IMG/VR virus record: IMGVR_UViG_3300042908_001001
Location: 1 to 64,000 of that record
DNA length: 64,000 nucleotides
Direction: 5' to 3' (one strand)
Source of the DNA: a virus
Notes under the pieces: generated by a model
Told to the model about the DNA's origin: nothing
Databases searched by the model: none
The model's input: the letters and a program-made list of their open reading frames with translations, nothing else
Shown: one piece after another, positions 16,149 through 62,903 of the stretch
How positions within the stretch are numbered: the first letter of the stretch is position 1
How the letters are laid out: each line of letters opens with the position of its first letter
Made by a program: the position numbers and the translations under genes

Positions 16149-17018
16149 ATGCTATTTTTAATCATGCCCACGAACCCAAAAAGTAAAGTCGATCAAAAGA
16201 TTCTAATGGATCAGTTTTTAGCTCTACGTTTACTAATGGAAGAGTCGGGCATGATTAAATGGGTAAGCAAGAATGGCAAAAAGAATTTAGAGATTGAACC
16301 CAATTGTATCAGTCAACTAAAATCTCTTTACCCTGATAAAAAAAGAGAAATTCATTTAGGAGAAAAAGCAAAAGACATTTTAGTAATGTCTGTTAAGGGG
16401 ATGGTAATCGAAGTCGCTAGATACTATCTAGCAAAGATGCGCTTAGATAATTCAAAGCTAGATGAATTGATTCAGATGGGCTACTTAGGGGCTACTTATT
16501 CCCTCTATAAGTTTAATCCAACAAAAAATATCAAATGGTCATCTTATGCTTATCTTTGGATAAAAGCCAAAATCTCTAGAGGTTCTTATCAGGATTATCT
16601 AATAAAAGCTAATTTGAAATATGAAGCCTTAATATTGACAGTCCCTCAAAGGATAAAACGTTTTGATTTACTGGCTTTTTCTACGGACTTACTTTGGATT
16701 TATCTTTCCCAAAAGACAATCTATCCTACTTATCCTTTTAAGTTTTATTCGGAAAGTCCACAGGCAGATGACGGGTATACTTCTAGTATTTTTGACACTC
16801 TCCCATGTGAAAATAACAGAAATTTAGTTGATGAAATTCATTTAATTTTATCTCAGGACGAAATTGATATTCTAATGTCAGACGATCAAACCACAAAAAA
16901 GAAAAAAGACAATGTAGGTATTCTCGAAATGGCATTAATGCAAGGGATACCGTTAGACAATTTTTACGACAAAAAACAACAAATCATCAACAAAGTAATG
17001 GAGCGTATTGAATTATGA
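16149..17018 (+). CDS. divergent sigma-70-family factor
   Basis: 289 residues. Residues about 77-150 match sigma-70 region 2: a helix with VIEVARYYLAKM, then DELIQMGYLGATYSLYKF (region 2.1-2.2, core RNA polymerase contact) and KWSSYAYLWIKAKI (region 2.3-2.4, -10 melting and recognition). A region 4 is not clear; the C-terminal 60 residues keep only weak similarity. ATG 16149 and ATG 16164 (MPTNPK) are both possible. It probably redirects host RNA polymerase to a class of phage promoters. Operon member; stop overlaps the next start (ATGA). Confidence 0.8.
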   Translation: MLFLIMPTNPKSKVDQKILMDQFLALRLLMEESGMIKWVSKNGKKNLEIEPNCISQLKSLYPDKKREIHLGEKAKDILVMSVKGMVIEVARYYLAKMRLDNSKLDELIQMGYLGATYSLYKFNPTKNIKWSSYAYLWIKAKISRGSYQDYLIKANLKYEALILTVPQRIKRFDLLAFSTDLLWIYLSQKTIYPTYPFKFYSESPQADDGYTSSIFDTLPCENNRNLVDEIHLILSQDEIDILMSDDQTTKKKKDNVGILEMALMQGIPLDNFYDKKQQIINKVMERIEL

Positions 17019-18078: not shown

Positions 18079-18236
18079 TGGAAATAAAGATTAAGCTAAA
18101 CGTAATATTCTTGGCATTTTTTTGTATCTTGTCTATTTTTATTCCTTGGAAAACTATTCTTTTGTGGTGTGGTGCAATCTACTTATTGACAGCCATTAAT
18201 GACTTGTTTGCATTATTACAAGAGGTGAAGAAATGA
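18078..18236 (+). CDS. small two-helix membrane protein
   Basis: 52 residues; ATG follows GGTA with a TAATG stop-start overlap. Two hydrophobic segments (about residues 8-22 and 28-46) separated by PWK, so it is probably an inner-membrane protein. Function unknown. Confidence 0.6.
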   Translation: MEIKIKLNVIFLAFFCILSIFIPWKTILLWCGAIYLLTAINDLFALLQEVKK

Positions 18237-18403
18237 CACTAGGACGGCAATCATATCGAGCCATTATTACTCGCTATTCAAATCTTAAGCTTGACGATAA
18301 TATTCCCGCGATCGCAAGTCACCCGCTCAACCAATTCCCTGAAAATATCTCTCAACTCGAAATTAGTGGCAAGTCCCCAGAAATTAGGGTCGGATGTCGC
18401 TAG
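18233..18403 (+). CDS. possible short ORF truncated by the recombinase gene
   Basis: 56 codons from an ATG that overlaps the previous stop (ATGA) and follows GAGGTGAAG. All but the first 15 codons lie antisense to the recombinase 3' end. It may be the remnant of an operon gene cut by insertion of the recombinase, or chance. Confidence 0.3.
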   Translation: MTLGRQSYRAIITRYSNLKLDDNIPAIASHPLNQFPENISQLEISGKSPEIRVGCR

Positions 18404-19654: not shown

Positions 19655-19680
19655 GGCTGTCCCTCTATTTGTGATTCCAT

Positions 19681-19700
19681 TATACAGCCCACCCTGTATA
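19681..19700. promoter_or_regulatory. 20-bp palindrome upstream of recombinase
   Basis: TATACAG, six bases, CTGTATA: a perfect 7-bp inverted repeat, 27 bp upstream of the recombinase start and 25 bp upstream of the divergent gene at 19725. It could be an operator or part of a serine-recombinase attachment site. Confidence 0.6.
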
Positions 19701-19724
19701 TTCAATGCACAAATAGACTGAAAC

Positions 19725-19931
19725 ATGGACAAGGAAAGGCTTCTGGCAAAATCAGCTTATCTCAAAGCAGTTAATACGATGCTACTCATAGGCATTGAAT
19801 CGCAATTTTTTCCGATAGCCGAAACAACCAGTTATGAATTTGCGATCGCGCTTTTGGAGTGCATCAAGTTGTCAAAAAATTTAGCTGAGGATATTTTGGA
19901 AATAATTGAAACGGGAGTAGACGAATATTGA
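19725..19931 (+). CDS. small helical protein divergent from recombinase
   Basis: 68 residues, helical and acidic, no recognised family. It is divergent from the recombinase across the 20-bp palindrome. The position suits a recombination directionality factor or a small regulator, but no motif supports either. Confidence 0.5.
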   Translation: MDKERLLAKSAYLKAVNTMLLIGIESQFFPIAETTSYEFAIALLECIKLSKNLAEDILEIIETGVDEY

Positions 19932-41812: not shown

Positions 41813-42177
41813 CCTTGTAACCCATATCCTATTGCAATATATTGATCAAGTATTCTTTTTAGCCGTTGTCCATAGGTAGTTGATAGCCAACTTCCTAGAT
41901 CGGAACTATTCACAGCAAACTCAACTTTATTGTTTTGGGTTTCTACTGTTTTTAGTTGCCCAAATTTCAAAGGATCAACATTCTCTGATGAAAGATTTTC
42001 TGACAAGAATAAATAATGCGCGATCGCCAAACAATATGCTTGCTCTTTTTGAGGCGATTCAATATATTCATAATTCAATTCAATCAAAGTATTTTCGATT
42101 AACTTGGAAACAATATCAGAATCGATTGACTCAAATTCTGGAAACTTATCAATAAAAAAATTGTAGTCAATTGTCAT
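41809..42177 (-). CDS. head-tail connector, DUF4054-like
   Basis: 122 residues. FIDKFPEFESID at the start and QAYCLAIAHYLFLSE near residue 52 match the DUF4054 connector family. Would add to the portal ring as a head-completion protein. Overlaps both neighbours. Confidence 0.7.
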   Translation of the reverse strand: MTIDYNFFIDKFPEFESIDSDIVSKLIENTLIELNYEYIESPQKEQAYCLAIAHYLFLSENLSSENVDPLKFGQLKTVETQNNKVEFAVNSSDLGSWLSTTYGQRLKRILDQYIAIGYGLQG

Positions 42178-42395
42178 TATTCAGCCTCTACTAAATTTCT
42201 TAAAACCCCGTCTTTTTGAGACAATCTTAACCGTACTCTAGAATCAGGGATAATCATTTCAGTCCCGTATCTACCCTTCCAAAGACTATCGGAATTAACG
42301 TCAAGTCCGTCTTGTTTCTTGATCATGGTGATACCGTGTAAAGTGTGTTTTACGGTACTACCGAGGGGAATATGGACACTTTTACTCATAGACAA
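42177..42395 (-). CDS. small head-operon protein
   Basis: 72 residues, beta-rich and basic, ending at the TAATG overlap with the connector gene. Probably a minor head or stabilising protein by position; no family recognised. Confidence 0.55.
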   Translation of the reverse strand: MSMSKSVHIPLGSTVKHTLHGITMIKKQDGLDVNSDSLWKGRYGTEMIIPDSRVRLRLSQKDGVLRNLVEAE

Positions 42396-44499: not shown

Positions 44500-45681
44500 C
44501 TATTTTAAAGTAATTAAATTTTTAGAACGACTAGAAACATCACCACGAATGGAATCGGTTCTAACCTCATCAGGCGTTAATCCGTCAAGATGTTTTTTGG
44601 TTTCTTCCGTGTGATTCTTGGGAGAATTTTGAGATTGAAACCAAATCCCTTCAATAAAATCAGGCGACTTTTCATCCAACTTGACATCAGGGTACAAAGG
44701 AGCCAAGTAAGCTTTTTTCAACCCCAATTCGTCAAGGTCAAACGGATCGACAGAATCGGAAGTAAAAACGTCTTTGACTTTCTCAAACGTTTTAAGCCAA
44801 GATTTAATAGAAGATGAATCCATGCGGGTATTTTTAGCCGATTCAAGGTCAGATTCAAGCTTTTGAATCTTGGACTCAAGAGCGACTTTTTCACCATCCA
44901 AAGAATCGTACTTAGGCTTAAGCGAATCAAGCTCACTCTTTACCCGTTCACCTAATTCGTATTCCTTGGTAAGCGACGATTGAAGCGAGTCCAAAACAGA
45001 CAAAATCTCAGGCGATTCATCTGTCTTAACTTCATACTTCTCGCCCGTCCGAGGGATAGTATAATTTTTAATAGTTGTTACAGTCATAGATTTTTTGCTT
45101 TTTGAAACAGAATCTATTTTAATAATAACATCTGTTTCTTCACTGTCAAATCGTGCGTTATCCCCAGCCCTAGCTTTTTCGACTAACGCGATATGATTGC
45201 CTCCAATGTCTTCTTGCTCAACATCATATTCATATTCTTTTCCGATTATCCCCATCACGCCTAATTCATCCTTCCATATTCCAGAATCTTTTTTAAGGGT
45301 ACAGGTATAACCACAAGACAACTGTCTATGGGTTGCGATTGCGGCGTTGATAGCGGTTTTGTCAGTGATATGTAGTTTTGCATGAATCCAACCATCATCA
45401 CCGTAATAGCAATCAGGCACAAACCCTTTCTGATGTTGACTAGCATTGTCAGCCGTTACCAATTCTTTAGGATGGTCAAGAGTTACCAGTGAATTTCTAA
45501 AGCTATCAACAGAAGCCTTGACGTTTTCAGGCCTTCTCAACTCTCTAACCAGCTTCCCATCTTTCCAATAATTTTGAACACCGACACGGGCGACCCGCGC
45601 ATCCTCAATAGACAAAAATCCCTGCGGAGTCCATTTAGCACTCTTAGGGATTTTTACGGTATCGTATCTTAATTCACTCAT
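44500..45681 (-). CDS. head maturation protease-scaffold (DUF2213 family)
   Basis: 393 residues. Residues 1-190 match the DUF2213 protease: GFLSIEDARVARVGVQNY, LVTLDHP (candidate His), QLSCGYTC (candidate Ser), GGNHIALVEKARAG. Residues about 235-290 are a long coiled coil, as in scaffold domains. One polypeptide probably provides both scaffold and protease. First gene of the minus-strand head operon. Confidence 0.78.
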   Translation of the reverse strand: MSELRYDTVKIPKSAKWTPQGFLSIEDARVARVGVQNYWKDGKLVRELRRPENVKASVDSFRNSLVTLDHPKELVTADNASQHQKGFVPDCYYGDDGWIHAKLHITDKTAINAAIATHRQLSCGYTCTLKKDSGIWKDELGVMGIIGKEYEYDVEQEDIGGNHIALVEKARAGDNARFDSEETDVIIKIDSVSKSKKSMTVTTIKNYTIPRTGEKYEVKTDESPEILSVLDSLQSSLTKEYELGERVKSELDSLKPKYDSLDGEKVALESKIQKLESDLESAKNTRMDSSSIKSWLKTFEKVKDVFTSDSVDPFDLDELGLKKAYLAPLYPDVKLDEKSPDFIEGIWFQSQNSPKNHTEETKKHLDGLTPDEVRTDSIRGDVSSRSKNLITLK

Positions 45682-48032: not shown

Positions 48033-49082
48033 TTAAGTGAATGTGAGGGATAGCGTCATTTGAGTTGGTAAAGCCCCGTGTTTTTTAGTGTAAAGCTTTT
48101 CGGCTTTTGTGCGATAAGGTTCATCTAGTTTTTTTAGCCAATCAGAGAAAGTTGATTTACTTTTTCTAACATTGCAGGAATAACAACAAATCACAACATT
48201 GCTTTCAGAGTGCAATCCCCCTCTTGACAAGGGAATTAGATGATCTAGGGTTTTTAGTCTCCCCCTATCGTGTGCCTTATCAGCCATTTTTATCCCACAG
48301 TAAACACACAGGCTTGTCTCACAAAAAAGCTTTGTAATAACTTCTGGAGTGAGAGAGCCATCGCTCTGACTATTTATTCTCTCACGTCTTTTCCCTTGAT
48401 TGCTATTAACTTCTTCCCTGTGAGTATGACGATAAATCCTTGCGTATTCAACGATCTTTTCTTTATTGTTTTTTCTGTACTCCTGATTATATTTATTTAT
48501 TGTTTCTTTATTCCCATAGTAATACTCTTTGCTTTTTTGGTTAAGAGCTTCTTTATTTCTTACATGATATTCTTTACTTTTTGCCAGCATTTGCTCTCTA
48601 TTCCTATAATGATGATTAAGAGAGGATTGTCTTCTTTTTTCTTTGTTTTCCTCATAGTCCACTTTGCGCTTTTCTGTCAAAACGGATTTATTCTTTTCGC
48701 AGTACTCTTTTCTTTTTTGTGCTAGAGACTCTTTATTTGCTTCACAATATCTCTTGTGAGACTCCGCATTTCTTTCTTTGTTGACTTCATTGTATTTTCT
48801 TTTTCGTTCTTTTATGTTTTCTTTGTTTTTTTCGTAATACTCTTTTCTTTTTTCTGCCAATACTTCTTTGTTGTTTTCGTAATACTCTTTTTTCTTTTGA
48901 CAAACTTTTTCTTTGTTGTTTTCTTTATACCTCCGATGAGACTCTTTTTCTTTTTCTTTATTCTTTTTATAATACTCTTTTCTTTTTTCCTTATTCTTTT
49001 CCCTGTATAGCTTGTCTGATAGTCGTTTTGCTTCTTTTCTTTTTTCTATCTTATCAATGTCGTTTTGTGCTAGAATATCCAT
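48033..49082 (-). CDS. HNH endonuclease with 15-residue Lys-rich repeats
   Basis: 349 residues. Residues about 28-237 are some 14 tandem copies of a 15-residue unit beginning NKE and ending in KEYYEK-like residues, probably a long charged helix. The C-terminus is an HNH domain: CVYCG, LDHLIPLSRGG, NVVICCYSCN. Typical HNH proteins keep only one or two such units. Probably a homing or free-standing endonuclease. The antisense frame is open only because of the repeat composition. Confidence 0.85.
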   Translation of the reverse strand: MDILAQNDIDKIEKRKEAKRLSDKLYREKNKEKRKEYYKKNKEKEKESHRRYKENNKEKVCQKKKEYYENNKEVLAEKRKEYYEKNKENIKERKRKYNEVNKERNAESHKRYCEANKESLAQKRKEYCEKNKSVLTEKRKVDYEENKEKRRQSSLNHHYRNREQMLAKSKEYHVRNKEALNQKSKEYYYGNKETINKYNQEYRKNNKEKIVEYARIYRHTHREEVNSNQGKRRERINSQSDGSLTPEVITKLFCETSLCVYCGIKMADKAHDRGRLKTLDHLIPLSRGGLHSESNVVICCYSCNVRKSKSTFSDWLKKLDEPYRTKAEKLYTKKHGALPTQMTLSLTFT

Positions 49083-50038: not shown

Positions 50039-50404
50039 TTAAGCAGTACCGACCAAGATCCCTCGGAGAGGAGTACCAAACCATTGACTCCCCACAAGGC
50101 GATCGCTGGGGCTTGGTAGGGCATAAAAGCGGCCCGTCTTGGTCTCCCCTTGTAAGTCTATCTGTATGGGATAGAATTCGTGCGCTTTGAGGGCTACAGT
50201 CCCTTTTTGGTTGCCAGATAGTTTACAGATTATATTTTCGACACCAGGAAGATCGTAAACGGTCGGATCGCTGTCAGTCTCTAAACTTGCCTCGATAGTT
50301 GCCGTTGTCTCACTAAATATCGGTTCACCCGTCACCTCGCTAAACCCTATAGGTTCACTGGACGCGATCGCGTAGGTTATTCGTGCATTTATCTTCCCTA
50401 GCAT
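50039..50404 (-). CDS. putative minor structural protein
   Basis: 121 residues, beta-rich, no Cys, acidic. The composition resembles head-completion or neck proteins, but no family is recognised. Isolated from the head operon by 4.4 kb of methyltransferase and HNH genes. Confidence 0.5.
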   Translation of the reverse strand: MLGKINARITYAIASSEPIGFSEVTGEPIFSETTATIEASLETDSDPTVYDLPGVENIICKLSGNQKGTVALKAHEFYPIQIDLQGETKTGRFYALPSPSDRLVGSQWFGTPLRGILVGTA

Positions 50405-51955: not shown

Positions 51956-52026
51956 AACATAAGGGATTCAGCTTATTCTATGCACTAGAAATATTTCAGT
52001 CCATAAAGATGGATCACCTTTTTTGG

Positions 52027-52173
52027 TCTATTGACCATTACAACCTATACACAGAAGCCGATCCAATGGGGTCAAAAAGTTATTACTAAGGCTAAAAAGA
52101 TATTATATCCAAAGTAATAACTTTCTAAGGGGCTTGGATCGGCTTCTACACAAGACTCTTAACGGTCAATAGA
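52027..52173. repeat. large nested inverted repeat
   Basis: Three perfect arm pairs nest within 147 bp: TCTATTGACC (52027-52036) with GGTCAATAGA (52164-52173); AGAAGCCGATCC (52053-52064) with GGATCGGCTTCT (52136-52147); AAAGTTATTACT (52076-52087) with AGTAATAACTTT (52113-52124). A GATAT/ATATC palindrome is at the centre. The outer arm also forms a local hairpin TGGTC-TATT-GACCA. The 525-bp gap 51956-52481 has no credible gene. Could be an origin, a cruciform, a terminator or an RNA hairpin. Confidence 0.8.
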
Positions 52174-52417
52174 TTAAAATACCCGATCCCCACTTTTTTC
52201 ACTCACTATCTTGACTCATATTTCATCCTCACACCATAGCCATGTCAATCATTGACACAAGAAAACTCACTCATTTAAGCCCGTCCCCTATCTCGCTATA
52301 GTTTCTGCCTTCCGACTACCTAGCCCGCCTAGAATTTAATCCTATGGCCAAATGGTGAGACATTGAGTAAAGCGATCGCATTACAGGTTCACTCTAAAAA
52401 TTAATTTGATTAAATAC

Positions 52418-52460
52418 TTGACAAGTACAAAATATATTGATAGACTTGGGATATACCAAG
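52418..52460 (+). promoter_or_regulatory. accessory promoter and operator, copy A
   Basis: TTGACA, 17 bp, TAGACT, then CTTGG-GATATA-CCAAG at the expected start site (52445-52460). First of five related elements. Confidence 0.75.
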
Positions 52461-52481: not shown

Positions 52482-52664
52482 ATGACTACCAAATTTAACA
52501 AGTCTGAAATTAAATTGATTAATCAAATCAAAAAAGCAGGAGAGTTGATCATTTACAATGAACCTAAATTTTGGGATAAAGTGCAAAGAATGATAGATAA
52601 GAGTCCTGATGCTTTTTGCTACGAAGTTCTAAATTCTGGATTAATAGTAATAACCCTTGCATAA
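52482..52664 (+). CDS. small accessory protein
   Basis: 60 residues from ATG 52482 (AAGAGAGGACGTAGTA before it); an in-frame TTG further up lies at 52437 within the promoter. Helical N-terminus, hydrophobic end (SGLIVITLA). First of a series of small genes each following this promoter type. Function unknown. Confidence 0.6.
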   Translation: MTTKFNKSEIKLINQIKKAGELIIYNEPKFWDKVQRMIDKSPDAFCYEVLNSGLIVITLA

Positions 52665-52678
52665 CCACCACCGCGATC

Positions 52679-52700
52679 GCCTATCTCGCTTCTGATAGGC
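52679..52700. repeat. HIP1-linked hairpin, copy 1
   Basis: GCCTATC and GATAGGC around an 8-base loop; the 5' arm begins in a HIP1 octamer (52673-52680). No U run follows. Confidence 0.65.
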
Positions 52701-53172: not shown

Positions 53173-53215
53173 TTGACAAGTATAAAGTATATTGATAAGC
53201 TTGGGATATACCAAG
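53173..53215 (+). promoter_or_regulatory. accessory promoter and operator, copy B
   Basis: TTGACA, 17 bp, TAAGCT, then CTTGG-GATATA-CCAAG at 53200-53215. The 90 bp around it are nearly identical to copy A. Confidence 0.75.
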
Positions 53216-53237: not shown

Positions 53238-53459
53238 ATGACCACCGCAACTATCCCCGCCAATATTGAAAAGCAAGTAAAGTTTTTAAATCAATCATTA
53301 ATCAAAGGAAAGATTACAGTCGAGCTAATCATTGAATCTGTAAAGACCTATGCCGATTCTGACAACTACGAAAACGAAGACGTACTGGATGCAATGCTTT
53401 TCTGGTTAGAAGAAAAAATGACCCCCGAATCTTACTCAGAACTTTGTGACTCACTTTAG
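53238..53459 (+). CDS. small acidic helical protein
   Basis: 73 residues, ATG after AAAGAGAGGACACAGTA. Helical, with DNYENEDVLDAMLFWLEEKM. Second gene of the same cassette type as 52482. Function unknown. Confidence 0.6.
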   Translation: MTTATIPANIEKQVKFLNQSLIKGKITVELIIESVKTYADSDNYENEDVLDAMLFWLEEKMTPESYSELCDSL

Positions 53460-53472
53460 ATGAACCGCGATC

Positions 53473-53494
53473 GCCTATCTCGCTTCTGATAGGC
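53473..53494. repeat. HIP1-linked hairpin, copy 2
   Basis: Same arms and loop as copy 1 (GCCTATC / GATAGGC), 14 bp after the gene stop. Confidence 0.65.
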
Positions 53495-53523: not shown

Positions 53524-54327
53524 ATGGAAGATCTGAAGGCTATTTTTAATGACTGGCTTAAACAACAACCTCAATCTTATATGCTGTCTCAACCAGTTAA
53601 AGAATTGTTATTTAAAGCTTTTTTGTTTGGTAACGAAGAGGGTTATAAAAACTTGCCAAAAACCGATCCAGAAAATTACGATCATTTACTTGGCGTGATG
53701 CCCGATTCTGAAATTGCAAAACAATTTTCTATTTCTCGCCACTCTGTTTTATATAGAAGAAAAAAACTAGGGATTCCTGCCTACGATCCCCCTATACCAT
53801 ACGATCATTTACTTGGTACAAAACCAGATTCCGAAATTGCCAAAGATTTTGAGATGTCTGTTACGGCTGTACGCAATAGGAGGATAAGATTAAATATCCC
53901 TGCCTATAAAAACCCACCATTAAACATCCCTATTGATAAAATCCCGCCATCGTATGATCATTTACTTGGCACAATGCCCGACTCGCAAATTGCGAAAGAT
54001 TTTGGCACAACCAGACAATTAGTTCGATACAGAAGGAAAAAAAAAGATATCCCAGCGTTTGATCCTGTCCCAAAAATCGATCATTTGCTTGGCACAAAAT
54101 CCGATCACCAGATCGCCAAGGAGGTGGGAACACCTGTTTGCAATGTATCAAGAAAACGCCGAAAATTAAAAATAGATGTCTATGCCCCAGATTGCTTCTA
54201 TGCCCATTTACTGGGAACGATGCCCGATACTCAAATCGCAAAAGATTTCGGGGTTTCCAGTTCATCCGTTCAGCAACAGAGATCGAAACTAGGTATCCCC
54301 CCTTACAGCAAAAAAACATCAAAATAG
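53524..54327 (+). CDS. tandem array of five HTH repeats
   Basis: 267 residues. After an N-terminal 50-residue helical cap, five copies of a roughly 41-residue unit begin at DHLLG (residues 53, 94, 145, 186 and 227). Each reads as DHLLGTMPDSEIAKDFG, a helix-turn-helix with a variable second helix, then RRKKLGIPAY. One linker is 10 residues longer. Variation lies mainly in the recognition helix (for example SRHSVLYRR, SVTAVRNRR, TRQLVRYRR). This suggests one protein that reads an extended DNA sequence. Confidence 0.8.
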   Translation: MEDLKAIFNDWLKQQPQSYMLSQPVKELLFKAFLFGNEEGYKNLPKTDPENYDHLLGVMPDSEIAKQFSISRHSVLYRRKKLGIPAYDPPIPYDHLLGTKPDSEIAKDFEMSVTAVRNRRIRLNIPAYKNPPLNIPIDKIPPSYDHLLGTMPDSQIAKDFGTTRQLVRYRRKKKDIPAFDPVPKIDHLLGTKSDHQIAKEVGTPVCNVSRKRRKLKIDVYAPDCFYAHLLGTMPDTQIAKDFGVSSSSVQQQRSKLGIPPYSKKTSK

Positions 54328-54667: not shown

Positions 54668-54747
54668 AATACAATAACCCATAGACAAAATCTATCCCAA
54701 TCCACAAAACCATAGGCATACTAAATAATAGTATCTCATCTCAATAG

Positions 54748-54772
54748 AATGAGAATGATTATCATTCTCATT
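54748..54772. promoter_or_regulatory. Fur-box-like palindrome 1
   Basis: A 25-bp perfect palindrome centred on T54760. Its central 19 bp, GAGAATGATTATCATTCTC, matches the classical Fur box in all but two symmetric positions. Lies in a 358-bp gene-free gap. Confidence 0.65.
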
Positions 54773-54778
54773 TTGTTC

Positions 54779-54795
54779 CATAGATGGTTTCTATG
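54779..54795. repeat. 17-bp palindromic repeat, copy 2
   Basis: Identical to 50460-50476. It lies between the two Fur-box-like palindromes. Confidence 0.6.
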
Positions 54796-54797
54796 AT

Positions 54798-54816
54798 GAT
54801 AATGATAATCATTCTC
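54798..54816. promoter_or_regulatory. Fur-box-like site 2
   Basis: GATAATGATAATCATTCTC matches the 19-bp consensus Fur box at 18 of 19 positions. About 105 bp upstream of the promoter at 54921. Confidence 0.65.
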
Positions 54817-54920
54817 ATTTTTAATACCCTTTACGCTATATATAGGTTAGGGAGCTTGTGTGTATTTGAAAACATTTAGAATCCGAGTAGAAATGTTTTG
54901 AGATTGTAGCCTGTTTTTAA

Positions 54921-55276: not shown

Positions 55277-55678
55277 ATGGTCAAAGTCATAAGTCACAAG
55301 AAAGAAGTATTAGGACGGTATCAAAGGGCATTTAAAGCAAGTGCCGAGGATTTTGATACCGCCATGACTACCGTGATTAGAGAACCTAGAGACTGGCCGA
55401 GTGGATTCGGGACGACAATCAGGCGTGGCAGTGGTGAAACTGTAGTCGGTAGCTATCGTAATATTGTGGATTATGGCAATTTGAGAGATAGCCAGTTGAT
55501 GAGTGTTGAACAATTTAAGGCGATTTATTCGTGGGATGGTATGGGCGAGACACCCGCCGCTATCGTATTTTTCGGAGCTACCTTGAGAAACGGAACCCAG
55601 ATCCCGCCCAGAGACTGGGTATCAATGGCATTGAGTGAAATTAATTTGAGTGAGAAATTTAAAGACAATTTAGATTAA
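55277..55678 (+). CDS. head-tail joining / tail completion protein (HK97 gp10-like)
   Basis: 133 residues. PRDWPSGFGTTIRRGSG and NIVDYGNLRDSQ match the pattern of HK97 gp10-type tail-completion proteins. First gene of the tail module. Confidence 0.62.
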   Translation: MVKVISHKKEVLGRYQRAFKASAEDFDTAMTTVIREPRDWPSGFGTTIRRGSGETVVGSYRNIVDYGNLRDSQLMSVEQFKAIYSWDGMGETPAAIVFFGATLRNGTQIPPRDWVSMALSEINLSEKFKDNLD

Positions 55679-55682
55679 ATAC

Positions 55683-55726
55683 TTGACAAGGATAAATTAT
55701 GTTGTTAAGATGGTTAGTATAAACCA
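55683..55726 (+). promoter_or_regulatory. accessory promoter and operator, copy C
   Basis: TTGACA, 17 bp, TAAGAT, then TGGTT-AGTATA-AACCA (55711-55726). Confidence 0.75.
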
Positions 55727-55744
55727 AGTAAAGGAATTAATCAG

Positions 55745-55945
55745 ATGACCACTTCAAACGAAATTAAAAAAGCAGTCAAGGCAATCACAGGATTGAAAGT
55801 TAGAATCAAAGATAATAAAAAATTTTATACCATTAGCAACAGCGAAAGTCATCTTCCTAATGGGTTTGGTCACTTTGCGGAAGAATTAAAATCTATGTTT
55901 GCAGTAACCCGTCTTGATGGTTGTTCTTTTGACATTTTGAAGTAA
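55745..55945 (+). CDS. moron gene 1
   Basis: 66 residues, unknown. It has its own promoter-operator (55683) and intrinsic terminator (55966) and is inserted between tail-completion genes: the definition of a moron. The N-terminus is basic (KKAVKAITGLKVRIKDNKK), the end acidic. Morons often modify host behaviour or resist defences; here the role is unknown. Confidence 0.65.
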   Translation: MTTSNEIKKAVKAITGLKVRIKDNKKFYTISNSESHLPNGFGHFAEELKSMFAVTRLDGCSFDILK

Positions 55946-55965
55946 AAACAAAATCAATCAACTTT

Positions 55966-55991
55966 AACCCTTGCCCTAAAAAGTAAGGGTT
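55966..55991 (+). terminator. moron 1 terminator
   Basis: AACCCT ... AGGGTT around TGCCCTAAAAAGTA, then AATATTTTAT. Same design as the terminators at 58010 and 58672. Confidence 0.75.
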
Positions 55992-56022
55992 AATATTTTA
56001 TAAAACAATCCCACCTTGTTTT

Positions 56023-56292
56023 ATGGAATTATCTCAAGCATTAACGCCCTTTATCACGTTCAACGGTTGCCAAGCCTCGCAATTAATGGTTAGGCATTTA
56101 AGGTATGGTGATAAAAGTTTTTATATTGTTAGAAGACAGTTACTCAAGAAAGGGACAAAACCCTATTATGTTTGCGAGATATTCGGGACTAAATTTTGCT
56201 CTATCTCCCTTGAGCAAATATTAAAAGACATTGAAAGCGTTTACCCCTGTAAAAATTATAAATATTATGGCAATAACACCGTTACAGCTTAA
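56023..56292 (+). CDS. hypothetical small protein
   Basis: 89 residues, mixed alpha/beta, no recognised family. Its last 26 bp overlap the next gene. Placed in the tail module, so structural or assembly roles are possible. Confidence 0.5.
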   Translation: MELSQALTPFITFNGCQASQLMVRHLRYGDKSFYIVRRQLLKKGTKPYYVCEIFGTKFCSISLEQILKDIESVYPCKNYKYYGNNTVTA

Positions 56293-56689
56293 GTCCGACC
56301 TTGAAAAAGTATTAGAAGTTACCCGTCATCCCACCACCAAGAAAGTGCTTACCTTTGGATTGGTTGGTAAATACACTTATCAGGCTAACGGATTTATTGA
56401 TACCGCGATCGCGATCGGTTCAGCCAAAAGCGGTGTCACAGTCGAGGGATTAGAGATTGTAATTGATTTTCCTAAAACCGAATCATCTTGTAGTACCGAC
56501 AAATACGTGCAATTAACAGAGAAATTTACCGTTAGGATGATTCAACGTAGTGGCGAGAATTTATACCCTGCTAGGGAGATTATTAAAAGGCTAGGGTTAA
56601 GGGATTATACCGACTCATCTATTATTGGGGATGTGATTGGTAATTATCCCCAGTATGTTTTCAGTTTTAGATACTCGGAAGGATTTTAA
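56267..56689 (+). CDS. putative tail terminator
   Basis: 140 residues from ATG 56267 (MAITPLQLKSDLE), preferred over the in-frame ATG at 56231 inside the preceding gene. Position between the completion protein and tail tube, and beta-rich make-up, suit a tail terminator. No family motif recognised. Confidence 0.5.
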   Translation: MAITPLQLKSDLEKVLEVTRHPTTKKVLTFGLVGKYTYQANGFIDTAIAIGSAKSGVTVEGLEIVIDFPKTESSCSTDKYVQLTEKFTVRMIQRSGENLYPAREIIKRLGLRDYTDSSIIGDVIGNYPQYVFSFRYSEGF

Positions 56690-56744
56690 AAGTTGTGGTT
56701 ATTATTTAATAGCCTATTTTTAAAACTCTAGAGGTAAAATTTTT

Positions 56745-57530
56745 ATGGCTTCCGACTTTGAATTGTTTAGTAATCCGATTACAAGCAAAAACTCAGTTAT
56801 TAATGCAGGATCAAAATTACTATTGTGTGCATTGCCTACTGGGTTTAGCGGTAAGACTGGGCCTCCTGAAATTACTCTCACACAAAAAACATCTACGGCG
56901 GTTTCGGTTGGGGGTACTAGCCTGACGATTACTCCCAGCGAGGATGTGATTTTAGCTGATGGTGTGATTTTGTATTTTACTGGTAACAAAAAATTTGTTG
57001 TTAACGGGACTCAGACCGTTACTGGGACTGATTTTGTGTTGGCAATCGATCCCGCCACAACTGGGAATACCCTTAGCGGTGGTGAAACTTGCCTAACGTG
57101 GGGGGTTTTGGCTTTAAACTCTCCAACCGATATCCCCTTAAACCAAGCCTCCAACATGGAGGGTCGTGGCGATCTTAACTACGGATTCCAAAAAGGGCAA
57201 AATCTGGTTGGTACAACTTTCGCGCCCCAAATTACCTGTTTTACGACTAATGACGATATTGCCTATGATAAGCTTATCAAGCCCTACGATGGGTCTGGTA
57301 ATACTATTTTTGCAATGATTTGGAGGGGGGATGGTCGATGGGCGGCTGGTGAAGCATTAGTCGTTAATCTGACTGAAAACGGGGCTGAATCAACCCAGAT
57401 CAAGCCTACTTTCACGCTTGACTTCCGACCCCCTTGGGTTATGGGGATCAAGTATTCGGAGATGACCGATCCTCAAAAGGCAGAAGCCAACTTGATTATG
57501 AAAAAATCTGGACTGCCCTTGCTTGCTTAA
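56745..57530 (+). CDS. major tail (tube) protein
   Basis: 261 residues. Beta-rich with IPLNQASNMEGRGDLNYGFQ and AMIWRGDGRWAAGEALVVNL, features of siphovirus tail tube proteins. ATG follows AGAGGTAAAATTTTT. It is followed by a terminator and the tail chaperone region. Expected to polymerise around the tape measure. Confidence 0.75.
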   Translation: MASDFELFSNPITSKNSVINAGSKLLLCALPTGFSGKTGPPEITLTQKTSTAVSVGGTSLTITPSEDVILADGVILYFTGNKKFVVNGTQTVTGTDFVLAIDPATTGNTLSGGETCLTWGVLALNSPTDIPLNQASNMEGRGDLNYGFQKGQNLVGTTFAPQITCFTTNDDIAYDKLIKPYDGSGNTIFAMIWRGDGRWAAGEALVVNLTENGAESTQIKPTFTLDFRPPWVMGIKYSEMTDPQKAEANLIMKKSGLPLLA

Positions 57531-57552
57531 GTTTTACTCTTTACCCTCTCTT

Positions 57553-57578
57553 AACCCTTACTCTGTAGGGGTTTCTTT
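57553..57578 (+). terminator. tail tube terminator
   Basis: AACCC ... GGGTT with an 11-base loop, then TCTTTAT. 22 bp after the tube stop. Confidence 0.6.
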
Positions 57579-57606
57579 ATATCTATATTTTATTTTCCCT
57601 AAATAC

Positions 57607-57650
57607 TTGACAAGTATAAAATAAGGGTATAAGATGGTTAGTATAAACCA
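57607..57650 (+). promoter_or_regulatory. accessory promoter and operator, copy D
   Basis: TTGACA, 17 bp, TAAGAT, then TGGTT-AGTATA-AACCA (57635-57650). Confidence 0.78.
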
Positions 57651-57671
57651 AGCAAAGAGAGATTAAAGATT

Positions 57672-57989
57672 ATGGATTTTCAAAAAGAAATCACAATCAA
57701 AGGATGCACCATTAAATTAATCCCATCATCCGAGGTTCCAGTATATGATCGTTGTCAAGGGAAAAGGATTATGGGGGCTGGCTTTTTCCCTATCCCTGAA
57801 ACAAATTTAAAAGCATTATGTGTTTACACTCGGAGTTACGGAAAAAAGAGCTATTCTTTCGACTTTGGAGATACATGGAGTACGGTTAAAGAACACGCTT
57901 TTAGTTATTTCTTGGATTCATTAAAAGCTCAAATCGAAAATGAATTATACAGCACAACAGAAGGGACTTTATACGTCAAAGAAGCCTAA
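57672..57989 (+). CDS. moron gene 2
   Basis: 105 residues, alpha/beta, no recognised family. Flanked by copy D promoter and an AACCCT/AGGGTT terminator between the tube and chaperone genes. AAAGAGAGATTAAAGATT precedes ATG, identical to the leader of moron 3. Confidence 0.65.
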   Translation: MDFQKEITIKGCTIKLIPSSEVPVYDRCQGKRIMGAGFFPIPETNLKALCVYTRSYGKKSYSFDFGDTWSTVKEHAFSYFLDSLKAQIENELYSTTEGTLYVKEA

Positions 57990-58009
57990 AAACAAATCAA
58001 TCAATCCTT

Positions 58010-58041
58010 AACCCTTGCCCTAAAAAGTGAGGGTTATCATT
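58010..58041 (+). terminator. moron 2 terminator
   Basis: AACCCT ... AGGGTT then TATCATTTTTT. It runs into the start of the gene at 58046. Confidence 0.75.
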
Positions 58042-58045
58042 TTTT

Positions 58046-58279
58046 ATGCTTAAACTACAATCACCTAACGGAAAAGTAATTTTATGGGGTGCTACTGTAA
58101 GCGATCGCACTGTATCGGCTGAGATAGCGTTTATCGGGTCGTCAATTCAAAACCCGATGATTCCACTATCAAAACCTAACAGCAAGACTAGGGAGTGTTT
58201 TGTTAGACTGCCAGACAACTTTTTGATGCAAGCTTTGCCCATGAAAGGGAATAATATTACGCTTGAAATTATTGATTGA
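58046..58279 (+). CDS. hypothetical small protein
   Basis: 77 residues, beta-rich (KVILWGATVSDRTVSAEIAF). It starts within 5 bp of the moron 2 terminator and has no clear ribosome site, so its transcription depends on readthrough. HIP1 octamer inside. Function unknown. Confidence 0.5.
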   Translation: MLKLQSPNGKVILWGATVSDRTVSAEIAFIGSSIQNPMIPLSKPNSKTRECFVRLPDNFLMQALPMKGNNITLEIID

Positions 58280-58288
58280 TTAGAATGC

Positions 58289-58332
58289 TTGACAAGTACA
58301 GAATAAGGGGATAAGATGGTTAGTATAAACCA
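58289..58332 (+). promoter_or_regulatory. accessory promoter and operator, copy E
   Basis: TTGACA, 17 bp, TAAGAT, then TGGTT-AGTATA-AACCA (58317-58332). Nearly identical to copy D over 45 bp. Confidence 0.78.
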
Positions 58333-58353
58333 AGTAAAGAGAGATTAAAGATT

Positions 58354-58650
58354 ATGAACGCTAGAAAATACGACGACATTCAAACAAATACAGTTACTCG
58401 CTACGAAATCGCTTTGATGGAAGGCGAAAAAATAATCAAAGTTTTAGGTTACACAGCAAAGAAAACAAAGCAAGCTTTATTCAATACAGTAAGTAATGGG
58501 GATGACTTAACAAAATACTTTCAAGAATCAGAATTAGATTGCGAATATTTTTATGATAAAAAATGGGGGATCGTATTTTGCCCACGATTAAGAGTCGCAT
58601 TTTCTGGTAGAACAGAGAGACAAGTGGCAACAGAAAAAGTATTTGCATAA
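58354..58650 (+). CDS. moron gene 3
   Basis: 98 residues, alpha/beta, no recognised family; SELDCEYFYDKKWGIVF in the middle. Own promoter and terminator, between tail genes. Same leader as moron 2 but unrelated protein. Confidence 0.65.
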   Translation: MNARKYDDIQTNTVTRYEIALMEGEKIIKVLGYTAKKTKQALFNTVSNGDDLTKYFQESELDCEYFYDKKWGIVFCPRLRVAFSGRTERQVATEKVFA

Positions 58651-58671
58651 AAACTAAATCAATCCACTCTT

Positions 58672-58704
58672 AACCCTCGCCCTAAAAAGTGAGGGTTATT
58701 TTGT
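58672..58704 (+). terminator. moron 3 terminator
   Basis: AACCCTC ... GAGGGTT (7 bp), then ATTTTGTTTT. Confidence 0.78.
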
Positions 58705-58753
58705 TTTAATAATTATGGTTATTATTTATTGTCGTTAAATATTTAAAACAATT

Positions 58754-59476
58754 ATGGTACTTGCAGTAAATAGTAATCAGAGAGCGCGATTTGTAAAAAG
58801 TTTAGGGATTGACGAAAATAGTCTCCCTTTTGTATTATTCCCTAAACAATCTTTAATTCAGTCGGTTAGTAACTTAGTGACTGAATCGGTCGCTGGTTTT
58901 GATATTCCCATTATTAATGATTTTACGCCTTCCGAGAAACTCCTTTTTACCGCGATTGATTTAAAAGCCCGTCCTCTCTATATTGAATATCAGGAAGTCA
59001 ATGAGGATCTGGCAGAAGCATTGTCTTTGGTCGTTACCGCCGATGGTTCGCCATTAGTTCCCGATGGAATTGAACCGATTAAATTCATCACTCCTGATTC
59101 TGAATTTGTGCAATCAGAGATTTATACACAAATCACAAAATCACAGTCTTACAAGCGATTTAAACGTGACAACCGTGAGCTATTTGACGATCAGGATCAG
59201 GTCTATACGAAACTGATTATCCTTGACCTCACAATGGGACGTGCCAAAGTTGCTTTATTCCTTTCTACTCGGATTGATACAACTTGGTTTGATCGTGCAA
59301 ACGAGTTAAGTGTTGAGCAAATTAAGGAGATTGTGCAATTTATCCAGAAGGAAGGTAACGGGGGTAAAACGGAAGATGAACCAACAGAAGAAGACGAAAC
59401 TAAAGGAGAGGTAGTTACCGAAAAAAACGACTCCAACAAGAAATCGAAAGATGGTCAGATCACTACTGGGAACTAG
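58754..59476 (+). CDS. tail assembly chaperone (G-type)
   Basis: 240 residues, helical, charged C-terminus (EDEPTEEDETKGE). Position before the tape measure and the overlapping -1 frame identify it as the G-type chaperone. Codon 225 lies in a slippery A-AAA-AAC heptamer (59422-59428), allowing a minority of ribosomes to make a longer GT product. Tail proteins of this class coat and fold the tape measure. Confidence 0.75.
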   Translation: MVLAVNSNQRARFVKSLGIDENSLPFVLFPKQSLIQSVSNLVTESVAGFDIPIINDFTPSEKLLFTAIDLKARPLYIEYQEVNEDLAEALSLVVTADGSPLVPDGIEPIKFITPDSEFVQSEIYTQITKSQSYKRFKRDNRELFDDQDQVYTKLIILDLTMGRAKVALFLSTRIDTTWFDRANELSVEQIKEIVQFIQKEGNGGKTEDEPTEEDETKGEVVTEKNDSNKKSKDGQITTGN

Positions 59477-59835
59477 CGATCGCGCTTCCTAACGATGATA
59501 GATTTGATTATAGAAATTTTGCCAATCAATCACCTAGATTAATTAGGCAAGCACTCAATCAAATCTATCAAAAAAGGAACCTTGACCAGTATTCTACGGC
59601 TTTAGGGATTTCAACTTATGCAAACGCTAATAGAGGAGAAAATAGTCAGCCTATTGAGTTTTATCAATTCTTACCTCATCCATTAGTTTGGAGACAAAAT
59701 AATACTCAGAAGAAAATAAATATTAGTAAGAATACAGCGATTCAATTCTTAGCTGATTACTCTAGCTTTACCTCTGAAATGTTATCCGTCTTTGATGAAT
59801 GGATGGATGAGATAAGAATGACAGCAAGCGGTTAA
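59404..59835 (+). CDS. tail assembly chaperone T extension (-1 frame)
   Basis: An open frame in -1 relative to G, with no start codon of its own. It begins after TAA 59401-59403 and ends at TAA 59833-59835. Frameshifting at 59428 would add 135 residues (RLQQEIERWSDHYWELAIAL ...) to 225 of G, giving a fusion of about 360 residues. The protein-like content (Trp, HIP1-coded AIAL) and position match lambda-type GT products. Confidence 0.78.
   Translation, partial: RRGSYRKKRLQQEIERWSDHYWELAIALPNDDRFDYRNFANQSPRLIRQALNQIYQKRNLDQYSTALGISTYANANRGENSQPIEFYQFLPHPLVWRQNNTQKKINISKNTAIQFLADYSSFTSEMLSVFDEWMDEIRMTASG
59422..59428 (+). promoter_or_regulatory. -1 frameshift slippery heptamer
   Basis: A-AAA-AAC in the zero frame of G (codons AAA at 59423 and AAC at 59426), a canonical X-XXY-YYZ site. 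Both A-site and P-site tRNAs re-pair to AAA after slipping. Confidence 0.75.
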
Positions 59836-59867: not shown

Positions 59868-60074
59868 TTAAGACGTAATACTTACTACGCAAGCAGAATG
59901 ATAGGGTTTTGCATATATGTAATGGTTCCCGCCTGTATCTGTTTTCTCTCTTAAAAGAAATACAATTTTATCAAACTCTTTCATCCTATCTTTGTCAACC
60001 GAATCAATCGTGTAAAGCTTGTTTCGGATAAAAATTTTATATCCTTCTTTTACTTGCGACCAAGGTACAATCAT
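59868..60074 (-). CDS. hypothetical small protein
   Basis: 68 residues, beta-rich and SH3-like (SQVKEGYKIFIRNKLYTIDSV). Last gene of the minus-strand helicase operon; 2 bp after the previous stop. Function unknown. Confidence 0.55.
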   Translation of the reverse strand: MIVPWSQVKEGYKIFIRNKLYTIDSVDKDRMKEFDKIVFLLREKTDTGGNHYIYAKPYHSACVVSITS

Positions 60075-60076
60075 AA

Positions 60077-60478
60077 TTAAATCCTCTCAATTTGGTTAGG
60101 GTACACGCTTCCTTCCGTCCCGTCTTCATATTTTATATTAATATGGGGGCGAAACGAATCCATCGTAAAATAATCCTCTTTATGAATCTTTTTTAAGCTA
60201 TCATCCCACTCATGACGGGAACCTCTGTAAATACTGACAATGCCTATTTTGCCCGTTATTTTATGCCTTACCCTATCACCATTTGAGACTAGGCTAATAT
60301 CCCATAAAGGATTTTCAGGATTATGGCATATTTTATTCTTTTGGCTTTTAATTCGGTTGAACTCATTTAATTTATCTTCGGGAAGTTGAGATAAAAAATG
60401 AGATAACATACCTTGGGGAATAACATCTAATTGATTGATGTCATTGGTTGCGATCGCACGTTCCAGTAGTTCAATCAT
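60077..60478 (-). CDS. hypothetical protein
   Basis: 133 residues. N-terminal helical half and a C-terminal beta segment (VSNGDRVRHKITGKIGIVSI) resembling small DNA-binding or KOW-like barrels. Overlaps the upstream gene by ATGA. Function unknown. Confidence 0.55.
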   Translation of the reverse strand: MIELLERAIATNDINQLDVIPQGMLSHFLSQLPEDKLNEFNRIKSQKNKICHNPENPLWDISLVSNGDRVRHKITGKIGIVSIYRGSRHEWDDSLKKIHKEDYFTMDSFRPHINIKYEDGTEGSVYPNQIERI

Positions 60479-60804
60479 TTAACTGCTCTCCTTAAAATAC
60501 TTAGTCCAAAATCTGTCTTGGAAAACTCTTTTCCAATCTCTTTGGACTGTTGATTAGTTAATTTTGTTTGATGGTCAACTGTGCCAAAGAATATATCACT
60601 TCCTTTTTTCTTTCTTTGAACCATTGCGACTAATTCAAAATCCCCAAGAATTCCACTACTGACTACTACTCCAACTAGATAAAAGTTAGGGTCTGTAATG
60701 TCTTTTTTTGCCTTATTAGCTATCTCAAAAGCCTTACTATCTTCTAATGCTTTTGTGATGTGCCATTTCTTAACAGGCTGTGTTCCGAAACCTTTAGTGG
60801 TCAT
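60475..60804 (-). CDS. hypothetical protein
   Basis: 109 residues, alpha/beta (FYLVGVVVSSGILGDF). Overlaps the helicase stop by ATGA and the next gene by ATGA. Function unknown. Confidence 0.55.
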   Translation of the reverse strand: MTTKGFGTQPVKKWHITKALEDSKAFEIANKAKKDITDPNFYLVGVVVSSGILGDFELVAMVQRKKKGSDIFFGTVDHQTKLTNQQSKEIGKEFSKTDFGLSILRRAVK

Positions 60805-62717
60805 TTCTTTTTAACTCCTAGTAATGGTCTTGATAATCCGAACTCGTAGGCAATATTTAATAAATCACCATCTACATTGCCTTGTAGTAGTTTTTTCTGG
60901 TAACTATCTTTGATTAACTTTTCCTGAGCATATTTGTGAGTCCCTACAATTTCCCACCATTTAAAAGTTTGTAGATTGTCAATCACAACTCCCTTATACT
61001 GCCTTCCGTTGGGCATATAATAGGTTTTGTCAGGATAACCAAACTCAAGATAAAGAAAGTCCTGAATAAGGTCTTTATGAACTCCCATTAACTTAAGTTT
61101 ATCAGAATAAATTTGATGGTTAATGTCTGAATTTTGGAAGTTAAAAACGGCTCCTATGAACCAGTCAGGATGTGGTAAATATCCCCAACGTTCGTAAAAG
61201 TGTTCATAGATTTTATCGAGTGGTTTGTGATTATCGGTAAAGCGTTTATAGAGTTGATAACGTAGCCATTTATAGGCTTTTTTCTTCTCAGGGGAAAGGA
61301 ACTCAGAGACAATAAATCTTACTTCATAGTCTTTTGGTTCAACCTCTTTTTTAGGGAATTCATAATGGCAATGAGGGCATACCCTAGCAAATATAGGGAT
61401 TGATTTTCCGCATCCTCCATCTTTTTCAGGGCATTCCTTTTCTAATGCCATATTCTCCTTTTCAGGAGGGCATAAAGAAACATGAGATAAGTCTAAAGGA
61501 TCATCAATATCAAACTTTTTGCAGATATGTTTAAAGCATTCCCCAAAATCATAAATCGTTTTAAATGGGATACCGTCAAACTTCCTTAGAACCCGTCCTG
61601 CCATTTGGATAATGAGTTGAGGTGAACGACTCGGACGACCGATCAATTCAACCTCTAGACTGGGATCGTCATGCCCTTCTGTGAACTTTCCAACCCCTAC
61701 TAAAACATCAAAATCATGATTAGAATGCTCTAAGAAAATCCTATCAGCATCTTTATCATTTTCCCCTACTAAATATTTAGCAGATACTCCATTATCTAGA
61801 AATTGCTGACACAAATCCTTTGCTTGATTGACATTAGAAGTGAACGCGATCGCTTTCTTCCCTTTTTCGGCATTGATATAGGTTTCAACTATTTTGGCAT
61901 TGTACTCAGTGTTACAAGCCTTGATGAGTGACCCCATAGTATAGTCACCTGAATCATCCGTTTCTAGATTGTCTGTGACCTCCGTTTTAATGTCTAAAAT
62001 TCTGTCTTGTGCTAAATACCCTTGATTGATTAATTCCCTTGGACTAGGGCATTTAACAACAAACTGGACGTATTTACAATACCCTTCTCTACCTTTATCG
62101 GGTTTTCCGTCAGGCAAGTATAATTTGTTGCCTTGATTGTCGGTAAAATGGACAATTGATTCACTTCTCCAAGGTGTAGCAGTTAGCCACAAAAAGAAGC
62201 ATTTTGAGAGTGCCATAATGCCGCCCGAATAAAAGTTTTCAATTATTCGAGAGAATCGGAAAAAACCGCATATATGCGCTTCGTCGGTAATGACTAAGCC
62301 GATATTTGGAGGCATAGCAGACTCACCTAGCCGCCTGTGACGGGCTTCTAATGTTTGAATCATACAAAGTTGAACACTTTTGCTATGATCGTTAATTGCT
62401 ACGTTTTTTAATGCTTCTATGGGCATTTTTAAGTTAGTTGCAAGCCGTTCGATAGTCATCCCTGAAGCGATGATAGAAATATCATCAACTCCAATATTTA
62501 ATAATGCTTTGACGGTTTGAGCTATTAGCTTTTTGCGATGGCAACAGAACAAAACCCTACGATTTTTTTTAGTTGCATCTTGAATAATTTTTGACGCAAT
62601 AGCTGTCTTGCCTGATCCCGTAGGCCCATAAATTAATCCCTGATGAAAACCTTTCTTAAAAAAACTGTAGGCATCCGAGATGACCTGTAATTGATAATCA
62701 CGATAGGCTATCGACAT
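60801..62717 (-). CDS. SF2 DEAH-type helicase with zinc ribbon
   Basis: 638 residues. Motif I GPTGSGKTAIA (about 31), motif II DEAH (ITDEAHICG), motif III TATPWR, motif VI QMAGRVLR: an SF2 translocase close to the restriction-subunit/RecG-like UvsW group. A four-Cys ribbon follows (CPEKDGGCG ... CPHC). It may handle replication intermediates or act as a UvsW-type branch migrator. First large gene of the minus-strand operon. Confidence 0.85.
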   Translation of the reverse strand: MSIAYRDYQLQVISDAYSFFKKGFHQGLIYGPTGSGKTAIASKIIQDATKKNRRVLFCCHRKKLIAQTVKALLNIGVDDISIIASGMTIERLATNLKMPIEALKNVAINDHSKSVQLCMIQTLEARHRRLGESAMPPNIGLVITDEAHICGFFRFSRIIENFYSGGIMALSKCFFLWLTATPWRSESIVHFTDNQGNKLYLPDGKPDKGREGYCKYVQFVVKCPSPRELINQGYLAQDRILDIKTEVTDNLETDDSGDYTMGSLIKACNTEYNAKIVETYINAEKGKKAIAFTSNVNQAKDLCQQFLDNGVSAKYLVGENDKDADRIFLEHSNHDFDVLVGVGKFTEGHDDPSLEVELIGRPSRSPQLIIQMAGRVLRKFDGIPFKTIYDFGECFKHICKKFDIDDPLDLSHVSLCPPEKENMALEKECPEKDGGCGKSIPIFARVCPHCHYEFPKKEVEPKDYEVRFIVSEFLSPEKKKAYKWLRYQLYKRFTDNHKPLDKIYEHFYERWGYLPHPDWFIGAVFNFQNSDINHQIYSDKLKLMGVHKDLIQDFLYLEFGYPDKTYYMPNGRQYKGVVIDNLQTFKWWEIVGTHKYAQEKLIKDSYQKKLLQGNVDGDLLNIAYEFGLSRPLLGVKKK

Positions 62718-62873: not shown

Positions 62874-62903
62874 ATTATAAACACGGTCTTTTTAAAATGT
62901 CAA
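62874..62903 (-). promoter_or_regulatory. promoter of helicase operon
   Basis: Minus strand TTGACA (62903-62898), 18 bp, TATAAT (62879-62874), preceded by TGTTTTAAAAACTTTG. Drives the genes down to 59868. Confidence 0.72.

What the first reader, a model, noticed from the sequence alone, without database searches (positions are those of the whole stretch)
55683..58704. Three moron cassettes inside the tail module
Three unknown small genes (55745, 57672, 58354), each with its own promoter-operator and AACCCT/AGGGTT terminator, are inserted between tail genes. Promoter, 5' leader and terminator are near-identical while the proteins are unrelated. This is a plug-in slot design: cargo changes, frame stays. 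Morons often encode host-altering or anti-defence functions. The two genes at 52482 and 53238 have the same promoter and a hairpin after them.
Basis: partly seen in the sequence, partly recalled or inferred. Interest (0 to 1): 0.75.

Follow-up and report, generated by a model that had tools for sequence, protein, structure and literature searches.

The report
Small gene cassettes among phage tail genes
A virus of cyanobacteria carries three tiny, unrelated genes of unknown function between its tail genes, each framed by near-identical on and off switches, while the neighbouring tail genes carry a different switch of their own; such cargo genes are known in phages, but the repeated frame is an unusual variant.

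Summary
Three ORFans (55745, 57672, 58354) each have a TTGACA-17-TAAGAT promoter, an identical 17-nt leader start and a 10-11 bp AACCCT/AGGGTT terminator; shuffled sequence gives none. The homology runs from the promoter to the start codon (73 nt at 93% for cassettes 2 and 3; cassette 1 is less similar) and resumes at the stop codon. The ORFs between show no DNA or protein similarity and match no family. The genes at 52482 and 53238 use the same -35 palindrome but another operator-like palindrome and a hairpin without a T-run: cousins, not copies.

New here: structural genes carry a separate late-type element, GGTTA[A/T]TATT(T), upstream of 10 of 101 starts (0.24 expected), including neck, major tail, chaperone and tape-measure genes. 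The phage also encodes a sigma-70 region-2 protein. The tail region is therefore probably a row of separately promoted units, which would make inserted cassettes largely non-polar.

Cargo exchange between phages could not be tested: no relative covering this region was found. Anti-defence function is unsupported. Best filed as moron-like cassettes with a reused regulatory frame, a new variant of a known kind.

The parts
55683..55728 (+). Cassette 1 promoter (TTGACA-17-TAAGAT) and operator-like leader GGTTAGTATAAACCAAG
   Evidence: pattern search, 0 in shuffles
55745..55945 (+). Cassette 1 ORFan, 66 aa
   Evidence: ORF list; no family
55964..55993 (+). Cassette 1 terminator, 11-bp stem
55988..55998 (+). 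Late-type element GGTTAATATTT overlapping the cassette 1 terminator, 24 nt before gene 56023
57607..57652 (+). Cassette 2 promoter and operator-like leader
57672..57989 (+). Cassette 2 ORFan, 105 aa
   Evidence: no family; no relatives
58009..58036 (+). Cassette 2 terminator, 10-bp stem, abutting the start codon of gene 58046
58289..58334 (+). Cassette 3 promoter and operator-like leader
58354..58650 (+). Cassette 3 ORFan, 98 aa
   Evidence: no family; no relatives
58671..58698 (+). Cassette 3 terminator, 10-bp stem
52418..52460 (+). Related promoter, TTGACA-17-TAGACT, with palindrome CTTGGGATATACCAAG
52482..52664 (+). ORFan, 60 aa, behind the related promoter; followed by hairpin 52679-52700 without T-run
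53173..53215 (+). Related promoter, TTGACA-17-TAAGCT, with palindrome CTTGGGATATACCAAG
53238..53459 (+). ORFan, 73 aa, behind the related promoter; followed by hairpin near 53473-53494 without T-run
55277..55678 (+). Tail completion/neck1 gene upstream of cassette 1; late-type element at 55244
   Evidence: 30% identical to a G002 protein that matches phrog_5; element
56023..56292 (+). Gene of unknown function, 89 aa, behind cassette 1
56271..56689 (+). Probable tail terminator gene (by position; homologue in G002)
   Evidence: role inferred
56745..57530 (+). Probable major tail protein; late-type element at 56697, own terminator at 57553-57573
   Evidence: 28.7% identical to a G002 protein, role by position
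58046..58279 (+). Gene of unknown function, 77 aa, between cassettes 2 and 3
   Evidence: no family
58754..59476 (+). Probable tail assembly chaperone G; late-type element at 58717
   Evidence: position and overlapping frame, role inferred; element
16149..17018 (+). Phage sigma factor candidate (Sigma70 region 2), possible reader of the late-type element
   Evidence: Pfam E 1.7e-6; also in the relative

Best explanation
The three cassettes are autonomous one-gene transcription units of the moron type, set into gaps between separately promoted tail genes of a probably temperate siphovirus of cyanobacteria. Shown in the sequence: each has a consensus-like sigma-70 promoter, a palindrome at the expected start of transcription, a small ORFan and an intrinsic terminator; the frame is shared between copies up to the start codon and from the stop codon on, while the ORF differs; tail genes lack this promoter but most carry another element, GGTTA[A/T]TATT(T). 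Inferred: host RNA polymerase with its main sigma factor reads the cassettes early in infection or in the lysogen; a regulator binds the palindromes and sets the timing; the phage's own sigma factor later reads the late-type element, so the cassette terminators separate the two programmes without silencing most tail genes; the unlike ORFs arose by exchange of cargo within a shared frame rather than by divergence of duplicates. What the cargo proteins do is unknown; small proteins acting on the host are the likeliest by analogy with other morons.
For: Promoter-leader and terminator copies against 0 in shuffles. Stable terminators. Frame 93% over 73 nt and about 86% over 64 nt between cassettes 2 and 3, with the ORFs at chance level and shared 3' sequence starting at the stop codon. 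The leader is more conserved than the promoter spacer, as expected of an operator. Late-type element within 60 nt upstream of 10 of 101 genes, shuffled mean 0.24, maximum 3 of 300, kept upstream of the 7878 homologue in L111. Sigma-70 region 2 protein in the phage and its relative. Serine integrase.
Against: No relative covers the slots, so exchange is not observed. GC of the cargo (33-36%) is below the tail genes (40-45%) but ordinary for small ORFs of this phage (36.1%, sd 4.8). Gene 58046 starts right behind the cassette 2 terminator and has no late-type element at the usual distance, so it needs read-through. The two-block pattern (own palindrome and hairpin per block) points to local copying. 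No regulator, start site or cargo function was tested.
Confidence: 0.6

Rival explanations
1. Local duplication and divergence: one ancestral cassette was copied within the genome, the regulatory frame was held by selection or gene conversion for common control, and the ORFs diverged beyond recognition. No cargo was swapped.
For: All copies lie within 6 kb on one strand and come in two blocks, each with its own palindrome and hairpin. No copy of the frame was found in any other sequence.
Against: Cassettes 2 and 3 keep about 80-100% identity even in the spacer, the 18 nt before the ATG and the stretch after the stop codon, while their ORFs are at chance level in DNA and protein.
Confidence: 0.25
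2. Ordinary phage genes, not added cargo: the cassettes are small tail or late accessory genes with redundant internal promoters, transcribed mainly with the tail genes through leaky terminators or by antitermination.
For: Gene 58046 starts directly behind the cassette 2 terminator and must be reached by read-through. Terminator-like hairpins also follow the major tail gene (57553) and the chaperones (59834).
Against: Genes 55277, 56023, 56745, 58754 and 62972 each have the late-type element close upstream. A minus-strand block (59868-62717) lies between chaperones and tape measure, so one continuous operon is impossible there.
Confidence: 0.12

Closest known systems
Morons of temperate phages (Hendrix and colleagues; criteria as listed for Burkholderia prophages in PMC2920897)
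   Same: One-gene units between phage genes with their own promoter, operator and terminator; small unknown proteins; lower GC than the neighbouring tail genes.
   Different: Three units share one near-identical frame around unrelated ORFs, and the surrounding tail genes carry a separate late-type element; absence from the same site in relatives is not shown.
PeSL elements of T4-like phages (promoter early stem-loops; Arbiol 2010 and Comeau 2014, cited in PMC4503421; the papers themselves are not held)
   Same: Repeated promoter and stem-loop sequences beside shuffled small genes; proposed to mediate exchange by homology.
   Different: Here the stem-loop ends one unit and the promoter starts another, usually with a structural gene between; the phage is a siphovirus; shuffling is not observed.
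SAS/ESAS sequences of cluster K mycobacteriophages (PMC3203893)
   Same: A conserved element with inverted repeats in front of several unrelated small genes of one phage.
   Different: SAS/ESAS have no sequence likeness to this element and no paired terminator is described in the passages read.
Moron genes 8-10 in the late region of Bacillus phage SPP1 (PMC6316719)
   Same: Moron genes bracketed by transcription signals interrupt the conserved late gene order.
   Different: One multi-gene insert with a replication origin, not three one-gene units with a shared frame.

Membership tests
Moron | Own promoter, operator and/or terminator | tested here: met
   by sequence only
Moron | Inserted between genes that are adjacent in other phages | tested here: inconclusive
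   order neck, tail terminator, major tail, chaperone, tape measure is the usual one, but several roles rest on position; the relative G002 has a scattered order
Moron | Present in some relatives, absent in others | not testable with these tools
   no relative covering the region was found
Moron | GC content different from the phage | tested here: inconclusive
   33-36% against 40-45% for most tail genes, but small ORFs of this phage average 36.1%
Moron | Expressed independently of the lytic genes | not testable with these tools
   needs RNA data
PeSL of T4-like phages | T4-like myovirus genome | tested here: not met
   siphovirus-type gene set with a very long tape measure and a serine integrase
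PeSL of T4-like phages | Composite of early promoter and stem-loop in one intergenic region | tested here: not met
   cassette promoter and cassette terminator lie at opposite ends of the ORF; only the overlap of terminator and late-type element at 55988 is composite
Integron gene cassette | Promoterless ORF with an attC site and an integron integrase | tested here: not met
   each unit has its own promoter and the hairpin has a T-rich tail; the recombinase found is a serine integrase

The most novel reading that the evidence does not exclude
A phage cargo system in which a standard expression frame, with boundaries exactly at start and stop codons, serves as docking arms for the exchange of small host-acting ORFs, in a tail region made insertion-tolerant because nearly every structural gene has its own late promoter read by a phage sigma factor.
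Probability: 0.2. Interest if true: 0.72.

Novelty: new variant of a known kind. Interest (0 to 1): 0.45.

Why it matters
If right, it shows how a phage can take on new small genes without disturbing its late genes: units with a host-type promoter, insulated by terminators, among structural genes that mostly carry their own late promoter. The repeated frame would be a sequence handle for finding further cargo genes, which in other phages often act on the host. The late-type element and the phage sigma factor together offer a testable late-transcription switch in an almost unsampled group of cyanophages.

Tried and rejected
Searches for the frame elsewhere: patterns in viral contigs and GTDB genomes, blastn to phages and plasmids. 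All empty except L085, where the match lies inside a gene on the other strand of an unrelated contig and is chance. Cargo relatives: tblastn in plasmids and phages for all five ORFans and viral-contig scans for cargo 2 and 3: none. Cargo 1 was not scanned against viral contigs. Structure prediction of cargo 2 and 3 from single sequences gave mean pLDDT 43 and 39, so no fold search was made. Rfam gave only a sub-threshold match to a microRNA family at 54745-54824, an inverted repeat. Rejected: integron cassettes (own promoters, no sign of attC); an RNA hairpin in the leader (the palindrome spans the predicted start of transcription, so a DNA operator is likelier). The terminator stem shows one covarying pair (U-A, U-G, C-G) in three sequences, in the right direction but no better than shuffles.

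Full report
Setting. The window is part of a 76,533-bp virus record. It has 38% GC and 47 copies of GCGATCGC, the HIP1 repeat typical of cyanobacteria (own knowledge), so the host is very likely a cyanobacterium. The ends 1-510 and 76024-76533 are a 95.5% identical direct repeat, so the record is probably close to a full circle. It encodes terminase, portal, protease, capsid and tail assembly proteins and homologues of a neck1 protein and a tape measure. A serine integrase makes it probably temperate.

Observation. The three promoter-leader copies (55683, 57607, 58289) and three terminators (55966, 58010, 58672) are real and not expected by chance. They occur nowhere else in the record (for the promoter, for the terminator). 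The -10 and the next 17 nt are identical in all three, while the promoter spacer is 12/15 between cassettes 2 and 3 but only 7-8/15 to cassette 1. The leader is thus more conserved than its neighbourhood, which suggests a function. It holds TGGTTAGTATAAACCA, a palindrome covering the expected start of transcription, where a repressor site would lie. The -35 sits in a second palindrome, TACTTGACAAGTA, perfect at 52415, 53170 and 57604 and one base off at 55680 and 58286.

Frame and cargo. Between cassettes 2 and 3 the frame is 93% identical over 73 nt through the ATG and about 86% over 64 nt starting around the stop codon. The ORFs between are at chance: ungapped identity 80/291, local DNA score 17 against a shuffled mean of 20, protein score at the shuffled mean. 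In all three the shared 3' sequence begins at the stop codon, TAAAAAC. Exchange of cargo within a shared frame explains this more easily than duplication and drift, since even stretches without an obvious role are still largely identical in cassettes 2 and 3. It remains an inference from three copies in one genome.

The pair at 52482 and 53238. They share the -35 palindrome but have CTTGGGATATACCAAG as second palindrome and a CCTATC/GATAGG hairpin that follows four genes of that block (52673, 53467, 54331, 54636). Only the last is followed by a T-run. So there are two blocks, each with its own palindrome and hairpin, which points to local copying within each block at some stage.

A second promoter class. 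Upstream regions of structural genes share GGTTA[A/T]TATT or GTTA[A/T]TATTT. It lies within 60 nt upstream of 10 of 101 starts: 7878-9398(-), 31786 portal, 42177-42395(-), 44500-45681(-) protease, 50039-50404(-), 55277 neck, 56023, 56745 major tail protein, 58754 chaperone and 62972 tape measure. The shuffled mean is 0.24 and the maximum 3 in 300. The motif was first spotted in upstream regions of structural genes, so the count is partly post hoc, but whole-genome shuffles also give about 1 against 12. It is kept upstream of the 7878 homologue in the relative L111. The phage and this relative both encode a protein with sigma-70 region 2, the natural candidate reader; the link is inferred. A third repeated promoter, TGTTTTAAAAACTTTGTTGACA, precedes other genes.

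How it fits. With late elements of their own, most tail genes need not depend on transcription through the cassettes, so a cassette with its own terminator can sit in the gaps. The minus-strand block 59868-62717 shows that the tail region is in any case not one operon. At 55988 the late-type element is formed by the 3' arm and tail of the cassette 1 terminator, so one sequence may end the cassette and start gene 56023. The exception is gene 58046, whose ATG abuts the cassette 2 terminator; it has no late-type element at the usual distance and must rely on read-through.

Limits. Only one close relative was found, a 22-kb contig in which no counterpart of the tail region is seen. The distant relative G002 has homologues of the neck, tail-terminator, major tail and tape-measure genes in a scattered order, so slots cannot be compared. 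Cargo function is open: no family, no homologue, no usable structure. Anti-defence function is possible by analogy only.

Comparison. The units meet the transcription criterion for morons as listed in PMC2920897; the presence/absence and expression criteria could not be tested. They work somewhat like the PeSL elements of T4-like phages as described in PMC4503421, but are not members: the phage is not T4-like and promoter and stem-loop are not one intergenic composite. The reuse of one element in front of unrelated genes recalls the SAS/ESAS sequences of cluster K mycobacteriophages (PMC3203893).

Verdict. Observation confirmed with corrections; interpretation partly supported. A new variant of a known kind: moron-like units with a reused frame, in a tail region built largely of separately promoted genes.

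Noticed in passing
9414(-), 31747, 42414(-), 45705(-), 50428(-), 55244, 55988, 56697, 58717, 62938: Late-type promoter element GGTTA[A/T]TATT(T) 15-50 nt upstream of structural genes on both strands.
   Followed up: yes
24815, 38216, 46810(-), 50036(-), 62919(-): Another repeated promoter family, TGTTTTAAAAACTTTGTTGACA followed by a -10; the one at 62903(-) is a 12/12 consensus match.
   Followed up: partly
54748-54819: Two copies, as an inverted repeat, of a Fur-family-like box (TGAGAATGATTATCA, one base off TGATAATNATTATCA from own knowledge) about 100 nt upstream of the promoter of a zinc-ribbon gene at 54970.
   Followed up: no
53524-54327: Protein of five helix-turn-helix repeats behind the 53238 cassette; it matches HTH families and the PADLOC model Mad1. 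A possible regulator of the cassettes, untested.
   Followed up: no
59397-59835: Frame overlapping the end of the 58754 gene near CGAAAAAAACG (about 59420), as expected of a tail chaperone G/GT programmed frameshift.
   Followed up: partly
17025-19924 against L111 3111-5804: The close relative has a PhoH-like and a tyrosine-integrase-like gene (by eye) where this phage has the serine integrase: a swapped integration module.
   Followed up: partly
1-510 of the window and record 76024-76533: Imperfect direct repeat (95.5%) at the record's ends, as from a circular genome assembled from two variants or two gene copies.
   Followed up: no
52673, 53467, 54331, 54636: Four copies of hairpin GCGATCGCCTATC..GATAGGC, each behind a gene; only the last has a T-run.
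   Followed up: partly
52011-52189: Large nested inverted repeat (45-nt arms at 52053 and 52103, outer arms at 52011 and 52160) in a gene-poor stretch.
   Followed up: no
48033-49082(-): Protein with many 15-aa charged repeats (45-nt units) and, by eye, an HNH-like C-terminus.
   Followed up: no
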